A DNA stretch of 64,000 bases from Calocera cornea HHB12733 (taxonomy: Eukaryota > Basidiomycota > Dacrymycetes > Dacrymycetales > Dacrymycetaceae), in assembly GCA_001632435.1 (NCBI GenBank), contig KV424045.1:1-64000 (forward strand). Reading direction: 5' to 3'. Below the pieces are notes generated by a model that worked only from the letters and a program-made list of their open reading frames with translations, was not told where the DNA came from and did not search any database. Shown here in pieces: positions 1 to 61,961 of the stretch (within the stretch, counting starts at the first letter, position 1; each line of letters opens with the position of its first letter). The translations under genes and the position numbers were made by a program.

Positions 1-199
1 ATATTTCGTCATAGCCATGAAGACTGGAGGTTGTACTACGTCATGCGGTGTGTCTAATGGTTTGTCCGCTGCTTCCGATGCTGAAGGTTTCCTTCGGCAG
101 CTTCAGTGACCGTGATATGTTCATGCGCTATGCCGGGGGAGGGGTGGGCCACGGACAGGCCGGTACAACCACAGCTGACAAGACGCAGGACCAGATGTC

Positions 200-994
200 T
201 CACGTCGTCAGCCATGCAGATATTGATTCCTCTGCGGTATTGGAGGGAGGGGTACCTTCCCTCGGAACCTCGGACGAACTACCCAGTGGGCCCCCAAGAG
301 GTCTGCCCCCAGAAGAAGAGGAGGAGTGGGGTGCAGGAAGTGAGGAAGAAGGGGAGAGAGACTGGGTGAGCGATGGGGATGACGTTGAGTAGACGTATTG
401 TATTCTGGGTAGCGAAGAGTAATGAGCAGGGGTGAGAAGATCCTCAACTATCACCCCGGCATCACTTAGAAGATGTTGTGAGCGCGTGCGCGCCGCTGAG
501 CTCGGATGAGACGAACGCAAGGGAACGACCGGGTTATCGACAGGTCGACCTATTGAGTTAACTTGTGCGCCGAGAGCGTCCCGTGCGGCTTCAAGCGCTG
601 TCTGAGGCGGTCTTCCTCGTCGTTTGGGGAGGACAGGCACGGAGGTAGACAGCGCGGGTTTGGTGGATGTCTGAAGAGAATCATAGTCAGATATACACTC
701 TTACTTGAGAGATATCTTACGAGCCTTTTGTCGTTTAGCGAGTCCAGTCCACAGTCCGCCACTGGAGAGCAACCCAGCCTCGTCATCCAGAGAGCGCTTT
801 CGCGGCGTGAGCGTAGATTTCGCAGGCGAGCTGGATGAATGAAGCCTCGAGATCATAGCACGAGCTGCCGCCAACTCCTTCTGTTTCACGAGTGCCCGGA
901 GTTTGGCTTCTCTCAAGCCTCGCATCACAGCATCGAGTGTTTCATCATCTTCGCTTGGCTCCTGAATCCGGTAATGCACCTTCTGGATTCTCAT
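200..994 (-). CDS. AT-hook protein, reading frame split by one in-frame TAA
   Basis: One frame is open from an ATG at 994 to a stop at 200 except for a single TAA at 701-703. The first part (about 97 residues) has a charged helical stretch rich in Glu, Arg and Lys. The second part carries a classic AT-hook core, KRRGRPP, followed by a Ser/Pro-rich tail, so a DNA-binding role is likely. I found no canonical intron that removes the TAA and keeps the frame. A 34-nt GTAAGA...CAG intron (671-704) is possible, but it shifts the frame and loses the AT-hook. The gene is therefore either a recent pseudogene, two genes, or wrongly modelled. It is divergent from the JmjC-like gene at 1777. Confidence 0.4.
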
Positions 995-1402
995 TTCTCG
1001 CTCAGGACCAAAACATAGAGCTCAGGAGCGTCGTCTCCGTGAATGTATTGCTGGCATCTGGATGGAAACCGGACGAAGTTTCATCTCCAGGTGTCCTGAA
1101 GGCTGCTGAAGATCCATGTCCTCGGCCCGTTCTGGACTGTATCACCTCGGACGACCCGACGGTGAGTAAACTGTCTCGTTTGGGTACCTCATATAGAATG
1201 TTACTGACGGTGCTTTGCTAGATTGGATGGCTGAAGTAGAACCCGGGTGCTATATCTTGCTTGCAATGGCTTACATGCAGGAACCTCGTCTGTGTGTGAT
1301 TCAATGGACATGAGAGGCAAGGGAAATAGTATGTATGCTCTGAAGGCACGGCACGATCACTCGGTCTTTGGGGTGGCCCTAAGGAAGTTGGTATTCGGAA
1401 CC

Positions 1403-1454
1403 TCAACCGTCACTCAACCGTCACTCAACCGTCACTCAACCGTCACTCAGCCGT
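1403..1454. repeat. 11-bp tandem array (TCAACCGTCAC)n
   Basis: Four perfect copies of the 11-bp unit TCAACCGTCAC and a partial fifth follow directly after a TCGGAACC octamer at 1395. Confidence 0.9.
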
Positions 1455-1558
1455 GAATTCCATAGTGACTATACCTCAAAGATAGATCTATGAATATAAA
1501 TGGGTTCATTCTTCCCCATTGCGGAGCGCGGGCCCAATGGAAACATGGTCTCGGAACC

Positions 1559-1615
1559 TCAACCGTCACGGAACCGTCACGGAACCGTCACGGAACAGTC
1601 ACGGAACAGTCACGG
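1559..1615. repeat. 11-bp tandem array (GGAACCGTCAC)n
   Basis: One TCAACCGTCAC unit is followed by two GGAACCGTCAC and two GGAACAGTCAC units. It starts 156 bp after the first array and shares the same 19-bp lead-in, TCGGAACCTCAACCGTCAC. Confidence 0.9.
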
Positions 1616-1776
1616 TCCGTGGTGAGTGACGAGGCAGTGAATCTTCCGAGATATTCCAAAGCTTCCGTGGGTGTGTATACGCGTGCTGATAACGCAACGT
1701 GGGCGTCGAGTGCAACTGTCCGTTCACTCCCTCTGTGATACTGCCTAGCTGCACGGTTGCTCCTCATTGCTTCAAC

Positions 1777-3446
1777 ATGTCTCAGGCTGCTTCATGTGAG
1801 TAGCATGTACCTGACTGATTCAGGTACCTGTGCTAATTCTGACCAGTCAAGGCGTATCCAGCCAGTGTCAAGGACCTGGTCTACACCATCTGGAACCCCA
1901 AGAACAACCAACCGGTGGTCCATTCCCCTCCTGATGCTATGGGCTCCTCTGGTGACCTTTGCTTCCTACCTGGTGACGCCAATCTGTGGATCAAGGACAC
2001 CCAGGGTTGGAGACGGTCGAGCGGCAGATATCATGGCCATGGGATTGAGCATTATCCCACGGCACCCTACGGCGCCTTGCGCATTCAAGATGCCGATTAC
2101 CGGTTCCGATGGACGACAGAGACGGCTTACAGGAGCAAGAAGGGACGGGAAAATGAGAAAAGCAAGAAGCTTGCCAGCGCAGCAGGTGAATTCGCCATAC
2201 ATGTGAGACGAATGCTGAGAACTAACTCTGACTTGCAGGTTCAACATCGAGAATGCCAGGGGGCACCCGTGACGCAGACTACGATGCAGCGGCTGCTACG
2301 CACAGCGAGAGGGCGTCGGAACCTCCTGAAGACCATGATCCATGGCGTCAGCATGCCATTGATCAAGGAAACGGATGGATCTTGCCCGTGCTCGATCGAT
2401 GGGAGAAAACCTTTGGGGACGAGTCGCTCAGCACGAAGAATGGCGCGGAGATTCTGCGTGCCCTCCTCAGGGTTCCGTACACCATCGAGGAGCGAGAGAC
2501 GTATTCTCAGGATGAAGTGCTTCAACCTGGCAGTATCAAGCCCAGCTATGCGCATGTCAGCATCGATTTGCAGATGCTGTCAGAGGACACCACACTGGCC
2601 GTCAACAACCTGGATACTTGCACCGGCGAAGAGGTACCTCCGTCGGTACTTATGCACTCCCTGACCGCCCATGCTCGTGGTCGACATCCTACCGCCATAG
2701 TCGCTCAGTACGGAGTTTCGGATGTTCCCGCATCCCCCAATGGCATTGGACGCTGCCAATGGAAGGTTCCGAGCTCAGCGGGTTCCGTGCCTCAGGGGTT
2801 CCAGCCCTTTGTGACAACCTGCGTCATGCCTGCCGGAGGATCCTGCGACTTCCACCAGGACGGAATCGGAGCCTCATGGATTCATCACCATGTTGGCATG
2901 AAGGATTTGGGTGGACCGGACAAGCTGTGGCTGCTGGCGAAGAACACGACTCACAACAGGGAGATTCTGCAGCCTCACGGAAGAGTTCGCCTTGTTTGGT
3001 TTGACGCCAACCAAGTGATCCCTCGGCTAGAAGGCCTCCAGTACTACCTCGCCAAGCCAACTTTCCATCCTTGCGCACTGTATTTCGAACCGGGCTTATG
3101 GCACTTGGTGCTGACGATGAGTCTCTCAGCACATTGCAGCTTCCGATTTGCCGATCCTAGCAAGTTCCAGGAAGCAGTGCTGCACTTCAGCCGGGCGATC
3201 AAGTCTGCATGGACGCTGCCCACCCAGCCTGAGCGTCGGGTGCGCGCTGTAAATCTGCGGGAGGACTGGGACTACTGGAGGATGATCCCCGAGGTTCCGA
3301 AACGCTGGTTGGCCGACGTGGATAAGGCCGTGAAAGCGCTGGAAGCCGAGTTTGAGGAAGATGAGCGCATGGGTTCGCCGGAACCAGTTGATGATGAGGG
3401 TGATGATGGTGATGATGATGATGATGGCGATGAATACATACCTTAG
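1777..3446 (+). CDS. JmjC-like 2-oxoglutarate/Fe(II) oxygenase domain protein
   Basis: The exons are 1777-1795, 1847-2185 and 2239-3446, with introns of 51 and 53 nt in correct phase, giving 521 residues. The C-terminal half resembles a JmjC/cupin fold. An H-x-D iron motif is visible in DFHQDG (His325, Asp327), and a distal His408 lies in GLWHLVL, the usual spacing for the iron triad. The N-terminal third (Trp/Pro-rich) is not recognised. The protein ends in an Asp-rich tail coded by GAT repeats (3390-3440). JmjC enzymes demethylate histones or hydroxylate proteins, but divergent fungal members mostly have unknown substrates. It faces an AT-hook ORF and converges on a cysteine-cluster gene, so a chromatin role is plausible but inferred. 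Confidence 0.6.
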
Positions 3447-3706
3447 CTTAGACAGTTGGTTGTAACTTTGCCCCTATAATACAACATGTGCTCCCCTCTC
3501 CCCTCATTATCAAAAGAGATCGGCATGTGACCCTGGGACCAGTGACATATCATGATGAGCAGTGAGGCAAGTGTTGCTGAGGATCGTGCTGTTACCAGAG
3601 CCGTCGGAACCTCGGACTGGGTTTTCACGCCTTTTCATTCCACAAATGACTATGTACAAGCTATCTACGAGGTAGGGGTTGGTACCCTAATACGGACGTC
3701 TAACTA

Positions 3707-6616
3707 TTACCTCTCTCTGCGGGACCTCTTGACCGCAGCCCGCATAAGCGCTCCAGCAGACTCATCTGAGCTGGTCTCGCCCTCCTCACTCTCGATTTCA
3801 GGCACCAGGACGTTCCAGCCGTGCCTCGAGACCTCCCGAGGCCTGGAAGGTCCGGCGTCTGCATTGGTGGGACCGGCAGACGGACCGACACGCCGAGGAC
3901 GAGGAGGACGACGAGGTTCGGTTCCGGAAGGACGGGGAGTGACACCAGGAGGGGGTTGAGCAATGATCATGTCCCCCATAGTCTGCGGGGGCAATGGGTT
4001 GAACGAGTGGCGAAGCGCCAGAGGGGGGCGTCCGGATGCGGGAGGGCGGTTAACAGGCCGTTCAACGTTGGTCTGCAACGTTGAGGCACTCTGGCGGGAG
4101 CGCAGTGCATACGGGCCGCTTGGCCGAGGTTCCGAAGTAGGAGGAGGACGAGCCGAGCGAGAGACGGGCGCGGGAGACGTAGTCGTGGGAGGAGGCTGCG
4201 CGGTGCGAGACGAGCGGGAGGAGGCCGGAGCAGTCGAGACGGAAGCAGGGGCGGCCGCAGAGACAGGCTTCTTCGGGAACACAACTTCCACCTCGAAGGC
4301 CCCGGGGGGGAAGCCCTTGCTCCTCCGAGGAACATATCGAGGGTCGAATTTCTCCAATGAAATGCCCCTCGGAACCGTGGGGCCATCCCAGGTGATACGA
4401 GGGGCCGCAGACCTCCAGTCGTTGCGGTACTCGCTGGCACGATCCGCATGCGGGCTGAGAAACTCGTCGGAGCAGATCCTCCAATCCGAGTAGAATGAGG
4501 CAATCTTGTCCTGCCAACCTGGTCATGTATGAGTAATGAATGCTTGGGTACATAAAGAACGGGTGCTTACCGGAACCACCTTTTCCACCACCCTTGACGG
4601 CGCCGCCCTTGACACCATAGGTGCACTTGATCTTGGAGAGTTTGCACGGCCAGCAAACTTGTTGAAACTCGCGCCCACAGGAAAATCGTCCAGCCTTGAT
4701 GCAGTTGTTGCATCGGCCAGGACCGGTTTCGAGCTGTAATGAAGGTTAGGCAAGGTCGGAACCTCGGGATAGAAGAAACTGACCCTGCAAATGATGCCCG
4801 CGCGTCCCGTCCATTCGAGGTAGCGATGTTCAGCAGGCCACTCGTCCTGAGGAGTAATCCCGGGAGGGACAATCGCATATCGGTCTTCAGTCTGGTTTGG
4901 GAGTTAGGGTGATACTTCAGCCATCTGGTATTAGAAGACTTACCTCAATTCGGAACCCTCCTTCCCCGTCACGGTTGCGCACAGGACCAGTGTAGCCGGG
5001 AGGAATAATCTCCTCGGGAAGCTCAAGAGACTGGAGACAAATTAGAACCAAAATAGAAAGCAGAATGCTGAACTAACCTCTTCACTCGTACTGGGAGAAG
5101 GAGCACGTGGCGGGGGAGGAGTCGAGGTTGCTTTCCCCTTGCCCTTGCCCGTATCCTTCTCCTTCCCCTTCCCCTTTGCGTTCTTGTCCTGTTCTTGCCC
5201 CTTGGGATCCTGTACATCCCAGCCGCTCTCACCCCATCCGGCCGGTTGCCCCCAGCCGCCCTGGTTGTCGTCTGGGACATCTGCTGGCTTCTGCTGTGGC
5301 AGCGTGGCCCGTCCCTTGCCCTTGGCAGCCCGTCTCTTGAACAACTGGGCGACACCAGTGACCAGCTTGTCGACCACTCCGGGAGCATCACCGAGCTCAG
5401 GCGAAGGGGGAGGTTCCGAAGAGTGATGAGGTTCCGGAGAGGGAGGGAAAGTCTCGAGAGGTGGGCGAGAGGTGGCCCTGGACGACGGGTACGCAGAGGG
5501 AGGCAGTGAGGGACCCCTGGAAAGGGGTGCAGCCGATGGGGAGCGGGCAGGAGGCCTAGACGGGGGAGCAGCCGATGGGGAGCGGGCAGCAGGTGGGACG
5601 GAGCGACTGGCGGAGGGAGGGGCTGAGCCGTCTCGACGGGAAGGCGGCTGGGAGGCACGAGTGGGAGGAGGAGTCTCTGAGGGGCGCCGAGTCGAGGCAG
5701 GGGAGGTGGGGCCAGAAACCGCGCCAGGGAGCGCCGACTGCAAACCCTAGATCACACTGGTAAGTCTCGGAACCTCGGAAAGAAGTGACCCACTCACCAC
5801 AGGCTGCATGAGAGGAAGCAGCCGGAGACGATTCATCAACGGATCGTCCTCCCAGCGGCAGCGCGGAACAGGGTGCGGATCGGGGAGACACAGCGTGACG
5901 GCCTCCATCCGAGGAAAAGGGTTCTCGCCGTCGATCCACGCATTCAACTGCCGAGCCAGTTCCGTGGGAGATTGAGACGTGGGTCGCAGGGCCCAATTGT
6001 TGCCGTCATCGGTAGCACCGTCGGGGTTCCGAAGGATGAGGTTGCCTTGGAGAAACATCTCGGCTGTGGCGGGTGTACGAATGTACGCCTGATACCACAG
6101 AGGAAAGCCGTCGTACAGGCTGACCACGCGTTCGTCGATCATGATCTCGATATTCGGGTAGGCCAGGACGATTTGCCGAATGGCGAGCTAAGGGGCCATG
6201 AGCAAAGGGAAAGGGAGGAGAACGTCGAACATGCGCACTGTAGGTTCCGCATACCGACGGAACATCAGCCGGGCCCAGGCCGAAGCAGTGTCTGCACCGC
6301 GCTGTTCCATCAAGTCTCCCGTGAGATCAAGCAGGTCGTGTGCCTCAGCGAGGTTCCAGCGACGTGCATATCGAATGACACGTTCATTGGGGTTGAGGTC
6401 GATATAAGCGGGAGGAGCCGGATAGAATCGACGAGCAGTCGGATTGGCGAGCTGTTGAAAGTCGGGGACGGTTCCGAGCCATTCGGAACCGTCGACGAAG
6501 CCGGGAAACTGCCAGTCGAGGACATAGTCGAACGCGTACCAGAACTCGTCGGCGTTTTCGGAACCTTCAGCCCAGTCGTTCGAGGTGGGATTGCGGTAGG
6601 GGGTGGGTGTGGCCAT
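3707..6616 (-). CDS. Large hypothetical protein with a six-cysteine cluster
   Basis: Seven exons join in phase: 6616-6239, 6187-5798, 5746-5078, 5030-4944, 4891-4784, 4733-4571 and 4518-3707, giving 868 residues. The intron at 6188-6238 is 51 nt and holds the TAG that would otherwise break the frame. Residues 1-256 look globular, 257-480 are Pro/Ser-rich, and residues 552-581 have the pattern C-x2-C-x7-C-x7-C-x2-C-x6-C. This resembles the atypical Zn2Cys6-like clusters of many agaricomycete proteins of unknown function. The C-terminus is again Pro/Arg-rich. DNA or RNA binding is possible. An in-frame ATG at 6772 is an alternative start. It converges with the JmjC-like gene, leaving 260 bp. 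Confidence 0.65.
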
Positions 6617-7509
6617 CTTGGTGGACAAGGGAAGCAGTAGGAAGGCGAGAGGGCAGAGTGAGGGTTGCTGTGAAGCGAGACGGTTAGTTGACGCTTTATG
6701 CGAGGGAGCGAAAGGAGGGGGGAGCGCACCGACAGGGGGGATGGCAGCGAAAGGGGAGAGCGGTGATCGCAAGCCCTCGGAACCAAGCCGCGCGAGGAGA
6801 ACGCGTGTTGGACAGCCTTGGAAGCGTTGAGAAGACGTGCCGTCCGCCGTCCTTGCCGAGGGGAACGACCGGGAAGACGTCAGAAGATGGGAGATGATGG
6901 CCGACGGCCATCACTTCGGAACCGAAATCAGGAGTAGAAGCCATCAGGAACGGTCCCAAAGCCGGCAGGAAGGCTAGGGGGGGTGTCAGAGGCATGTTAG
7001 GAGAAAGGAGAAGAAAGCCGAGGTTCCGAAGCAAAGGGGGTCGATGAGTATGGGACGGTTCCGAGGTGCAAGGGAGGAGAGGGGAAAGAAGAGAGGAAGA
7101 CGTCGGAACTCAGGGGAACCAGTTGGGCGACTCATATAAGCAGCCCCTCATGTAAACAGATACACCGGATGCAATGACTGACGCGTGTAACGCGTCCAAC
7201 CAATAAACAATCACTTATGGGATTGTAAAAAATGAAACTTGCCATTCAAAACGCTTATATATTACAAGGTAAAGAGCCTTAACAGGGCTTAAACTATCTT
7301 ACAACAGTCTTACAATGGTTCCGAAGGCTTACTTCGGAAACAGACTCATGGGAACGGCGACAGCGCGGCCCTAAGCCCCTATCAGGCCTTATCAGGGGCT
7401 ATCAGCGTCCTTGGACCCTGGCACCGCTTGCCCTTCTGCGTCCGCCTGACGGAGCCAACTGGAAGGGTCTATAACCCTACACCAGGGGCCGCCGGTTTTC
7501 GTGATGCAG
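6617..7509. other. Spacer and probable edge of the accessory island
   Basis: This stretch holds the upstream region of the cysteine-cluster gene and five TCGGAACC octamers, then turns AT-rich (about 7140-7320). Two small inverted repeats follow. CCGAAG/CTTCGG at 7321-7337 has a 5-nt loop. AGCCCCT/AGGGGCT at 7374-7400 is arranged around a central AGGCCT. Homology to an oxidoreductase gene begins right after, near 7510. I see no gene here. Confidence 0.5.
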
Positions 7510-7922
7510 GTTCACGAGCGCTATGTTTGACTATGGGTCGTTTGCGTGCACGTATGAGACGGGCGTGGACCAGGTCGGCAAGTTTGATGCATATATCGAG
7601 ATCTTCGCGGGCGACAAGAGGGTCAGGGTTGATTTTGATACCCGTAGGTTTGCACTGACAGCTGATGAACTCGGGCACTGACGGTGTGGGTTTAGCATTC
7701 ATCAAAGGGCTGCCGATCAACATCATCCTCTCGTCGAACATCAATGGCGCGTTCGTAGAGCAGAAAATCACCCCGACGTACGAAGACCCATACACGCTCG
7801 AGATGAAGGAGCTGTACGACGCGATCGTGAATAGCAAGCCATTTAAGTCTACTGTGGAGGACGCGAGGAAGGACCTCGAGATCTTCAACATGATCATAGA
7901 CGCTTTGCCTAAGTCGTCATGA
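7510..7922 (+). pseudogene. Truncated Gfo/Idh/MocA-family oxidoreductase, C-terminal part only
   Basis: Two exons, 7510-7643 and 7696-7922, join across a 52-nt intron in correct phase. The roughly 120-residue product matches the end of a Gfo/Idh/MocA NAD(P)-dependent sugar dehydrogenase: a beta-sheet segment ending VRVDFDTP, then GLPINI, then DPYTLEMKELYDAI and a final helix DARKDLEIF. The N-terminal Rossmann domain and the substrate Lys motif, normally some 200 residues or more, are absent. Upstream sequence is AT-rich and non-coding. I infer that the 5' end was removed when the island formed or inserted. Coding quality of the remainder is still good, so the loss may be recent. Confidence 0.7.
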
Positions 7923-60800: not shown

Positions 60801-61961
60801 CCCTTGTTGTACTACCCAAGACCAACCCCTTGAGACATGCAAGTATTCTTTGTAAGATCATGCTCTGCCTGCAGTATACTTCATTACTAATCAATCCTCC
60901 GCTTTGAATCGAGACTAGAACCCATGAACCCTCGACTGAAGACGCGACTAACCGACTTCCAGCCAGCCAAGGGCAGGCCCGAACGACCGGTGCAGGGAAC
61001 AAGAACGACGTCGGGCAACATGGGCCCCACTCCTTGGAGCTGCACTATAGACCGAACCAAACCCAGGCCACAAGATCACCCATGCTGGAACAGTACGCCC
61101 GAAAGGGCCAGCTCCACACTTCTCACACAAGCACCTAGAAGTCTTCAATGAAGTAGCCTGTACTGGCTAGGAGAAGCCCTTTGGTGCTTGAGAGGGTTAT
61201 GGACGCTGGATATGGAGGAGAAATGAGGCGCGCAGCTCTGTCTAGAGGACAGAAGTCGGAGCAGGAAGAACACCGGTGAAAAATACAGACTTGGGCGTGC
61301 CTCTGATCTCCGAAGGCGGAGAACAGGCAGCTCGCTGGCCATCACCAGCTGCGTGACTGGTCACGCAGCCGTTGTGCAAGGTTTGATTGGCGTGTACGGA
61401 GAGAAGCGCGAGTCGCCCTCTGCCCTTTCCCGATACTTACGGCCAGGCACGCCCACTGTGGCTAGCCGCAAGCACGACTCAGAACAGGGGAGCTCAGCGC
61501 CCCGTCACAGGCGGCGTTGGTGCACAGAAAGGGGGCTGATACAGATGACATGGAGAGAAGCCAAAGAAGTGCGGACAAGTACCAACGAGCACATCAGCAA
61601 ATTCGCATTAGCTCATGGAGCGTGGTATTGGCTCCGTTCGATTTGGGGATGCGCAGGGAGACGCGCTTGCTGGACCCTGAGTCCAGTCAGCTGTCCTAGG
61701 CGCGTCGGCGCGTCTGTTGCCTCTTATTGGGTGGTCTGTTTACTCCCGTTGCCTCCGCGTCTGTTGTTTGGTGCTCCGCGTGGCTCCTGAGGTTCGATTT
61801 GCGGCTGTTCGATTTGCGGCTGTTCGATTTGCGTCGTAGGCAGCCTGAGACGCGTCCCTCTCTTACGCGTTCGATTTGGGGCACTGCACGCAGCCGATCA
61901 CCTCTGCATTCTCTCCTGTCTGCATCGACGATCTCTGCTTCTCGTCTCAATCTACTGTGCA
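60801..61961. other. Spacer with short GTTCGATTTG repeats
   Basis: No gene is supported. Several short frames (61353-61790, 61696-61962) have no motif. Five GTTCGATTTG decamers lie between 61636 and 61878. Confidence 0.4.
61792..61833. repeat. 15-bp tandem repeat (GTTCGATTTGCGGCT)n
   Basis: Two perfect copies and a partial third. Single GTTCGATTTG copies also occur at 61636 and 61869. Confidence 0.85.

What the first reader, a model, noticed from the sequence alone, without database searches (positions are those of the whole stretch)
262..7324. An octamer, TCGGAACC, saturates the first 7.4 kb and vanishes afterwards
I counted 22 copies (both strands) in 7.4 kb, where about 0.2 are expected, and none in the next 56.6 kb. 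Copies sit in exons, introns, spacers and at the head of both minisatellites. The boundary of the motif coincides with a truncated host gene, so the motif marks a distinct DNA element. It could be the target of a DNA-binding or DNA-modifying protein encoded in the element, a replication or pairing signal, or a self-spreading short repeat.
Basis: partly seen in the sequence, partly recalled or inferred. Interest (0 to 1): 0.88.

Follow-up and report, generated by a model that had tools for sequence, protein, structure and literature searches.

The report
Transposon families tagged by private words
A jumping gene in a jelly fungus is peppered from end to end, even inside its genes, with one eight-letter DNA word; two other families of the same kind have their own words, and two unrelated retrotransposons carry one of these words each, which suggests a tag-and-reader system that shields mobile DNA from silencing.

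Summary
In detail: 23 copies of TCGGAACC at 262-7324, none in the other 56 kb. The window is the start of a contig of Calocera cornea. The island is the right part of a 13.8-kb PlavakaB-type DNA transposon (CATCA..TGATG ends, 2-bp duplication CA, in-frame empty site) with 40 copies of the word in all. It encodes a Plavaka transposase, a DUF6698 protein, a JmjC-like oxygenase and a cysteine-cluster protein. The three oxygenase-bearing element families found in this genome are each saturated by their own word: TCGGAACC, AACTGTCA, AC[CT]TGACA. Three sampled Plavaka loci without detected oxygenase have none. Two homologous Ty3/Gypsy retrotransposons, not homologous to the transposons, carry GGAACC/TCGGAACC and AACTGTCA respectively. 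Between two AACTGTCA elements that differ at about 23% of sites, fourfold synonymous sites inside the word differ at 3 of 34 and outside at 193 of 413. Best explanation: a family-specific tag read by an element-encoded protein that directs an anti-silencing JmjC-like oxygenase, with retrotransposons copying the tag. It works like Arabidopsis VANC but is not a member of it. The reader protein is unidentified; binding and anti-silencing are inferred.

The parts
1..7506 (.). right part of a 13,833-bp PlavakaB-type DNA transposon (family F1); the left part is on contig C76:141980-148684 (378-bp overlap with the window) and, in a second copy, on C84
   Evidence: C76 and C84 ends overlap window 1-378 and 1-565 at 99-100%; termini CATCAGGG...CGTGATG; Plavaka transposase PF18759 on C84
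262..7324 (.). 23 copies of the word TCGGAACC (13 +, 10 -); 37 copies of the core GGAACC in 1-7506
81..392 (+). likely last exon of the Plavaka transposase (ends ..DMFMRYAGGGVGH...DVE)
   Evidence: ORF 48-392, after the transposase ORFs of C84; exon start is an estimate and the C-terminal motif is recalled
408..1264 (.). word-free patch 97-98% identical to two inverted pieces of a locus on C111; probably a captured host segment
   Evidence: 0 GGAACC in the patch
1402..1454 (+). minisatellite, 11-bp unit CTCAACCGTCA, headed by the word at 1395
1561..1615 (+). minisatellite, 11-bp unit AACCGTCACGG, headed by the word at 1551
1777..3446 (+). JmjC-like Fe(II)/2-oxoglutarate oxygenase gene, 521 aa (CALCODRAFT_529597); exons 1777-1795, 1847-2185, 2239-3446; conserved H325, D327, H408
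3707..6616 (-). gene C, 868 aa, 7 exons, proline-rich, with a cysteine cluster; candidate word reader (inferred)
   Evidence: gene model by hand, introns of 47-52 bp
4623..4712 (-). cysteine cluster CX2CX7CX7CX2CX6C of gene C (residues 552-581), resembling a fungal Zn2Cys6 cluster
   Evidence: no Pfam hit for gene C residues 1-689
7492..7506 (-). right terminal inverted repeat CATCACGAAAACCGG
7507..7508 (.). target site duplication CA (the other copy is on C76 just before the left terminus)
7509..7921 (+). 3' half of the disrupted Gfo/Idh/MocA-type oxidoreductase-like gene (introns not modelled)
   Evidence: joined flanks read in frame ..RLPGSRFTSAMFDYGSFACTYETGVDQ..; PF22725 E 0.016, below cut-off

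Best explanation
The island is part of a PlavakaB DNA transposon whose whole body is tagged with a family-specific recognition word. I think an element-encoded DNA-binding protein reads the many scattered sites cooperatively and brings the element's own JmjC-like oxygenase to the element, removing silencing marks (histone or DNA methylation) from it and not from the host. Because any DNA dense in the word would be served, a Gypsy retrotransposon has evolved the same word, and a second pair (transposon F2 with another Gypsy) has done so with another word. Shown: saturation, one word per family, conservation of the F2 word at synonymous sites, co-occurrence with the oxygenase, sharing with Gypsy, CpG-type decay of older copies.
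For: Exclusive words: F1 has 23 (window) and 18 (C84) TCGGAACC in its two overlapping halves, F2 57 AACTGTCA, F3 16 and 17 AC[CT]TGACA in two pieces, each with 0-1 of the other families' octamers. Nucleotide-level selection: F2 copies L031 and L034 differ at 18 of 272 word positions against 1,071 of 4,530 others, and at 3 of 34 against 193 of 413 fourfold sites, Fisher p 7e-6. Words sit on both strands and in two (F2) or three (F1) codon phases. The oxygenase genes found in the genome fall in three families and all three are saturated; three Plavaka loci without it are not, although the F2 transposase is far closer to those three than to F1 or F3. Two homologous Gypsy families share the F1 core and the F2 word. 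Older F1 copies show C-to-T at CpG at 18-27% against at most 3% elsewhere, as expected if the host methylates the family. The oxygenase has HxD..H and its model's best structural matches are JmjC proteins.
Against: No binding, methylation or expression data. The oxygenase model is weak (mean pLDDT 43) and Pfam finds no JmjC domain. Gene C has no relative in the loci read from F2 and F3, so no single reader is common to all. In dead F1 copies the word's CpG is not clearly protected from decay (9 of 25 hit against 169 of 374 outside). Among 13 control octamers seen six times or more in the F2 pair, the median difference rate was 0.16 and 3 (with 24-32 positions each) had 0-0.063, at or below the word's 0.066, so the synonymous-site test carries the argument. 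Between two Gypsy copies GGAACC is not conserved above its surroundings (2 of 84 against 32 of 1,167). Gypsy carries words without a visible oxygenase. Only three families with and three loci without the oxygenase were compared, out of the 74 Plavaka matches.
Confidence: 0.5

Rival explanations
1. The words are binding sites of host proteins (transcription factors or chromatin openers). Each transposon family, and some Gypsy families, accumulated sites for one host factor to keep its genes on.
For: The word is shared by elements without nucleotide homology. The words are short, dispersed and on both strands, like factor sites.
Against: Words fill exons and whole bodies up to within about 0.2-0.3 kb of the ends, not only promoters. 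The co-occurrence with the oxygenase (3 of 3 against 0 of 3) is not predicted. The words occur 0-2 times each in 56 kb of ordinary DNA.
Confidence: 0.22
2. The words are cis signals of transposition, like the subterminal TNPA sites of CACTA elements, bound by the transposase or its helper.
For: Plavaka is related to CACTA/EnSpm (PMC12730594, passages). TNPA-type proteins bind family-specific repeats (PMC2613891, passages). The internally deleted copy C202 keeps word-rich ends (7 TCGGAACC in 3.6 kb).
Against: Sites cover the whole element, coding exons included, instead of the ends; Gypsy elements, which use no transposase ends, carry the same words; three Plavaka loci have none.
Confidence: 0.1
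3. The word spreads by itself (template switching, gene conversion) or is imposed by a host mutational or surveillance process, without benefit to the element.
For: Both minisatellites begin with the word, and TCGGAACC is followed by TCGG in 7 of 23 window copies (12-mer count).
Against: Synonymous-site conservation in F2. Gag alignments show words mostly differing by point changes and not as copied blocks. A C-to-T process would destroy the TCG of the word rather than make it.
Confidence: 0.1
4. Compositional, coding or chance artefact (for example Ser-Glu-Pro repeats).
For: TCGGAACC encodes SEP in one frame, and 2 of 8 exon copies in gene C and 1 of 4 in the oxygenase do so.
Against: 0.3 expected; all three codon phases, both strands, introns and spacers.
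Confidence: 0.01

Closest known systems
VANC / VANDAL sequence-specific anti-silencing of Arabidopsis (PMC5735166, passages read; PMC10398659, abstract)
   Same: A short motif at high density nearly private to one transposon family, different motifs in other VANDAL families, and one motif set (VANC6) also present in an unrelated element (AT9TSD1).
   Different: VANDAL motifs lie mainly in non-coding regions, arrayed in the same orientation, and grow by tandem repeats. Here they are in exons as well as elsewhere, on both strands, dispersed, and differ between relatives mostly by point changes. The transposon is Plavaka. Binding is shown there and not here.
TET/JBP-bearing PlavakaB transposons of fungi (PMC12730594: abstract, sections 21 and 23, part 1 of section 24 and passages read)
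   Same: CATCA..TGATG termini, 2-3 bp duplications, Plavaka transposase, and an Fe(II)/2-oxoglutarate oxygenase proposed to counter silencing.
   Different: The oxygenase here resembles JmjC demethylases in the fold search instead of TET/JBP; the host is a dacrymycete. 'Calocera', 'Dacrymy', 'JmjC' and 'subterminal' give 0 occurrences in that paper, and the 'motif' passages I saw concern protein or terminal motifs.
CACTA (En/Spm, Tam1, Tgm) subterminal repeats bound by TNPA-type proteins (PMC2613891, passages read)
   Same: Family-specific repeated sites and a diverged DNA-binding helper.
   Different: CACTA sites are subterminal; here the sites saturate the whole 13.8 kb and are shared with Gypsy.

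Membership tests
PlavakaB DNA transposon | Plavaka transposase (PF18759) | tested here: met
   E 2.3e-12, 47.3 bits against cut-off 26.3, on the C84 half
PlavakaB DNA transposon | termini CATCA..TGATG | tested here: met
   CATCAGGG..CGTGATG in F1 at C76 and window; CATCAGCA..TGCTGATG in F2. The C84 copy reads AATCA at the first base
PlavakaB DNA transposon | 2 or 3 bp target site duplication | tested here: met
   CA on both sides of the C76-window insertion; the host gene reads in frame across the empty site. No clear duplication for the F2 copy on C91
TET+ Plavaka | TET/JBP dioxygenase | tested here: inconclusive
   HxD..H present; the 50 Foldseek rows shown of 746 are JmjC-type by title, one titled only 'an oxygenase', but the model is weak and absence of TET from a list excludes nothing
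JmjC oxygenase | HxD..H iron triad in the 2OG-oxygenase fold | tested here: met
JmjC oxygenase | Pfam-detectable JmjC domain | tested here: not met
   F1: no family at E up to 0.1; F2 and F3: none at E up to 1
JmjC oxygenase | demethylase activity | not testable with these tools
   no assay
VANC/VANDAL system | family-private dense short motif | tested here: met
VANC/VANDAL system | motifs mainly in non-coding DNA, same orientation, tandem arrays | tested here: not met
   12 of 23 window copies in exons of two genes; 13 + and 10 -
VANC/VANDAL system | VANC protein that binds the motif and lowers DNA methylation | not tested
   no VANC sequence was compared; binding is not testable here
Zn2Cys6 fungal DNA-binding protein (gene C) | CX2CX6CX5-12CX2CX6-8C (recalled) and Pfam match | tested here: not met
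   CX2CX7CX7CX2CX6C, one residue off; no Pfam family at E up to 1 for residues 1-689
CACTA TNPA-type subterminal site system | sites confined to subterminal regions | tested here: not met
   sites from about 0.3 kb inside the left end to about 0.2 kb from the right end, throughout

The most novel reading that the evidence does not exclude
Mobile elements of different classes in one fungal genome form 'clubs' defined by a short DNA password. A DNA transposon that encodes a chromatin-mark eraser founds the club and recoded its own exons with the password; an unrelated retrotransposon joins by evolving the same password through point mutations. Homologous retrotransposons have joined different clubs.
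Probability: 0.42. Interest if true: 0.93.

Novelty: new variant of a known kind. Interest (0 to 1): 0.82.

Why it matters
If true, it is a fungal, independently evolved counterpart of the plant VANC system. It would involve a different transposon superfamily, probably a histone-mark eraser as effector, and password words written into coding exons. It gives a sequence-only way to find self versus other recognition among mobile elements, with cross-class cheating visible, and makes the question of how an element-encoded eraser spares the host genome directly testable with a handful of proteins and three short words.

Tried and rejected
Chance and composition: rejected by shuffles. SEP-coding artefact: rejected by phases, strands and introns. 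Genome-wide abundant word: rejected. Conservation of the F1 word in older copies: not shown. GGAACC differs less than its surroundings (3 of 203 positions against 306 of 6,320, summing C84-C124, C84-C202 and window-C202), but by my estimate this is about the rate of non-CpG sites. The full word differs at 11 of 199 positions against 298 of 6,324 (same three comparisons), because its CpG decays.

Blind word searches in gag pieces: C153 and C37 show none. C1 (AGCGAAAT, ATTTCGC, ATTTCG: 1, 3 and 17 of 53 ordinary stretches reach the same value) and C48 (TCGAGA, AGTCTCG: 1 and 4 of 61) are borderline and not claimed. The C25 gag piece is no better in a blind search (2 and 1 of 59 at 6- and 7-mers); its claim rests on GGAACC being fixed beforehand from F1 and on both ends of the element. 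The C14 gag piece (1.1 kb) alone is not significant blindly; the 2.7-kb stretch is. F3 word in other elements: dense clusters on C13, C21 and C24, but only the first 100 of 289 places were visible.

Homologues of the oxygenase in the protein database: 2 searches returned only this protein (one search scored only part of its candidates). No PDB sequence match up to E 10. TET/JBP fold: not among the rows shown, which excludes nothing. The DUF6532 match of F2 is below Pfam's cut-off (19.1 bits of 24). Paper searches: (78, 92 and 94 returned nothing). In their listings I saw no report of saturating family words in fungal transposons nor of JmjC carriage by Plavaka; most subscription papers are not held.
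Full report
WHAT WAS CHECKED. TCGGAACC occurs 23 times in the window, all at 262-7324. Shuffled sequence gives 0.3 in 1-7506. In the whole assembly (32.1 Mb, 302 contigs) the word occurs 776 times, fewer than its reversed control at 1,240, so the island stands out strongly against the background. The protein at 1777-3446 is in the databases as CALCODRAFT_529597 of Calocera cornea HHB12733, a jelly fungus (recalled).

WHAT THE ELEMENT IS. The window begins at a contig end. Contigs C84 and C76 end in sequence 99-100% identical to window 1-565 and 1-378. Both carry the word over a further 6-7 kb, and the C84 stretch encodes a Plavaka transposase (PF18759, 47.3 bits, cut-off 26.3; matched on C76 too). 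Left terminus ATCAGGGAAACC and right terminus GGTTTTCGTGATG, at window 7506, are common to several copies. Joining the flank on C76 with the flank after window 7508 restores an open reading frame of a Gfo/Idh/MocA-type oxidoreductase with a CA duplication removed (the Pfam match is weak, E 0.016). So the C76-window copy is one insertion of 13,833 bp holding 40 words, 17 of them left of the overlap. CATCA..TGATG ends and 2-3 bp duplications are the stated marks of PlavakaB (PMC12730594, passages). Other copies are C84 (left half 99.9% identical to C76), an internally deleted copy on C202 and a partial copy on C124 (93-96%).

IT IS NOT ONE ODD WORD BUT ONE WORD PER FAMILY. Searches with the three known oxygenases find only three families of this gene in the genome. 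Family F2 (C91, C78, C6, C294) is saturated with AACTGTCA: 57 copies in the 8,577-bp C91 element, from 330 bp inside its left terminus. Family F3 (C24, C153, transposase halves on C21, C13 and others) carries AC[CT]TGACA: 16 and 17 copies in two pieces of 4.5 and 3.3 kb. That the F3 halves belong together is inferred from the shared word and the contig ends. Each family has 0-1 copies of the other families' octamers. In blind searches the three families exceed each of 60 shuffles and each ordinary stretch of equal length (7-17 stretches of this window) at 7- and 8-mers. Three Plavaka loci in which no oxygenase was detected (C132:67-72 kb, C93, C27; 5 kb each) show nothing; these are three of the many places among the 74 matches. 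The F2 transposase is much closer to those three wordless loci (134-437 bits for the longest piece) than to F1 or F3 (47-49 bits; the F3 piece is cut by a contig end), so the word goes with the oxygenase and not with the transposase lineage. The sample is small.

THE WORD IS UNDER SELECTION AS DNA. L031 and L034 are F2 copies that differ at about 23% of aligned positions. Inside words they differ at 18 of 272 positions, outside at 1,071 of 4,530; 25 of 31 words are intact in both. At fourfold sites of the two genes it is 3 of 34 against 193 of 413, p 7e-6. Control octamers are a weaker contrast: 13 of them had a median rate of 0.16, and 3 small ones (24-32 positions) lay at or below the word's 0.066. 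Words occur in two codon phases and both strands in these genes, and in all three phases in the F1 genes.

THE WORDS ARE SHARED ACROSS CLASSES. A Gypsy retrotransposon (C25, with further ends on C192, C36, C64, C100 and a more diverged piece on C2; integrase tail with a chromodomain read on C192) has 25 GGAACC in 2.5 readable kb (2.3 expected), 8 of them TCGGAACC, and no nucleotide match to F1 of 80 bases or more. In its pol end all 6 Glu-Pro pairs are written NNG GAA CCT; in its gag 4 of 6 are NNG GAA CCN. A homologous Gypsy on C14 (60% identical gag; retrotransposon gag and Ty3 capsid domains) has 21 AACTGTCA in 2.7 kb against 0.1 expected, and no TCGGAACC. Aligned gag genes show that words in one family usually differ by a few point changes from the matching place in the others, with some places in gapped, poorly alignable stretches. 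In Gypsy the words are mostly on the coding strand, 36 of 46 (18 of 25 and 18 of 21); the test run used 35 of 46 and gave p 0.0005.

HOST SILENCING. Comparing C84 with C124 and C202, and the window with C202, C-to-T changes hit 18-27% of CpG cytosines and at most 3% elsewhere, with TCG the worst context in the two longer comparisons, 36% and 51%. This is the pattern expected of CpG methylation followed by deamination, so the family is probably a target of silencing. The word contains TCG, and in dead copies it is not clearly spared (9 of 25 motif CpGs hit, 169 of 374 others). The word therefore does not seem to protect by itself in cis.

MECHANISM. The simplest account is a tag-and-reader system: a reader binds dense words and brings the oxygenase to erase silencing marks on tagged DNA. 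VANC of Arabidopsis binds motifs and lowers DNA methylation, and one VANC motif also occurs in an unrelated element that responds to it (PMC5735166, passages). Differences from VANC: coding exons are tagged, both strands are used, the words are not in tandem arrays, and the transposon is Plavaka. Which protein reads the word is open. Gene C is attractive for F1 because zinc clusters of the Zn2Cys6 type bind CGG (recalled) and the word contains CGG, but it has no relative in the F2 and F3 loci read by then and no Pfam match. The N-terminal domain of the oxygenase is shared by F1 and F2 and is an equal candidate.

VERDICT. Real, strong, and more general than the finding said. Function is inferred. 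New variant of a known kind, with a part (cross-class sharing of words by homologous retrotransposons) that I did not find described in the searches named under Tried and rejected.

Noticed in passing
L018+L019 (C25:93251-100680), L027 (C192), L020 (C36), L025 (C64), L026 (C100): A Gypsy retrotransposon family (chromodomain seen on C192) with the same GGAACC core at higher density than the transposon; the inner 4.9 kb of the C25 copy reads N.
   Followed up: yes
L046 (C14:329901-332600): A homologous Gypsy family saturated with the word of a different transposon family (AACTGTCA).
   Followed up: yes
L049 (C1 gag) and L050 (C48 gag): Borderline own words (AGCGAAAT; TCGAGA) in about 1-kb gag pieces of other Gypsy families; more sequence is needed.
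   Followed up: partly
window 408-1264 and L040 (C111:55700-58900): A word-free 857-bp patch made of two inverted pieces of another locus, 97-98% identical, probably captured recently; consistent with words accumulating slowly.
   Followed up: partly
L029 (C124), L037 (C202) against L023 and the window: Decay of dead copies is dominated by CpG C-to-T, with a TCG preference in the two longer comparisons, in a dacrymycete.
   Followed up: partly
L038 (C204:42300-44689): The right end of an F1 copy carries about 1.86 kb of inserted sequence between window-equivalent 7217 and 7215.
   Followed up: no
C21:90226, C37:69612, C49:32607, C76:10624: Triplets of AACTGTCAGC with the same spacing at four places, probably short F2-derived fragments.
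   Followed up: no
window 61792-61833; L041, L042: CAAATCGA/AAATCGAA recurs weakly in the window's last 8 kb (15-bp tandem repeat) and in two wordless Plavaka loci; not significant.
   Followed up: no
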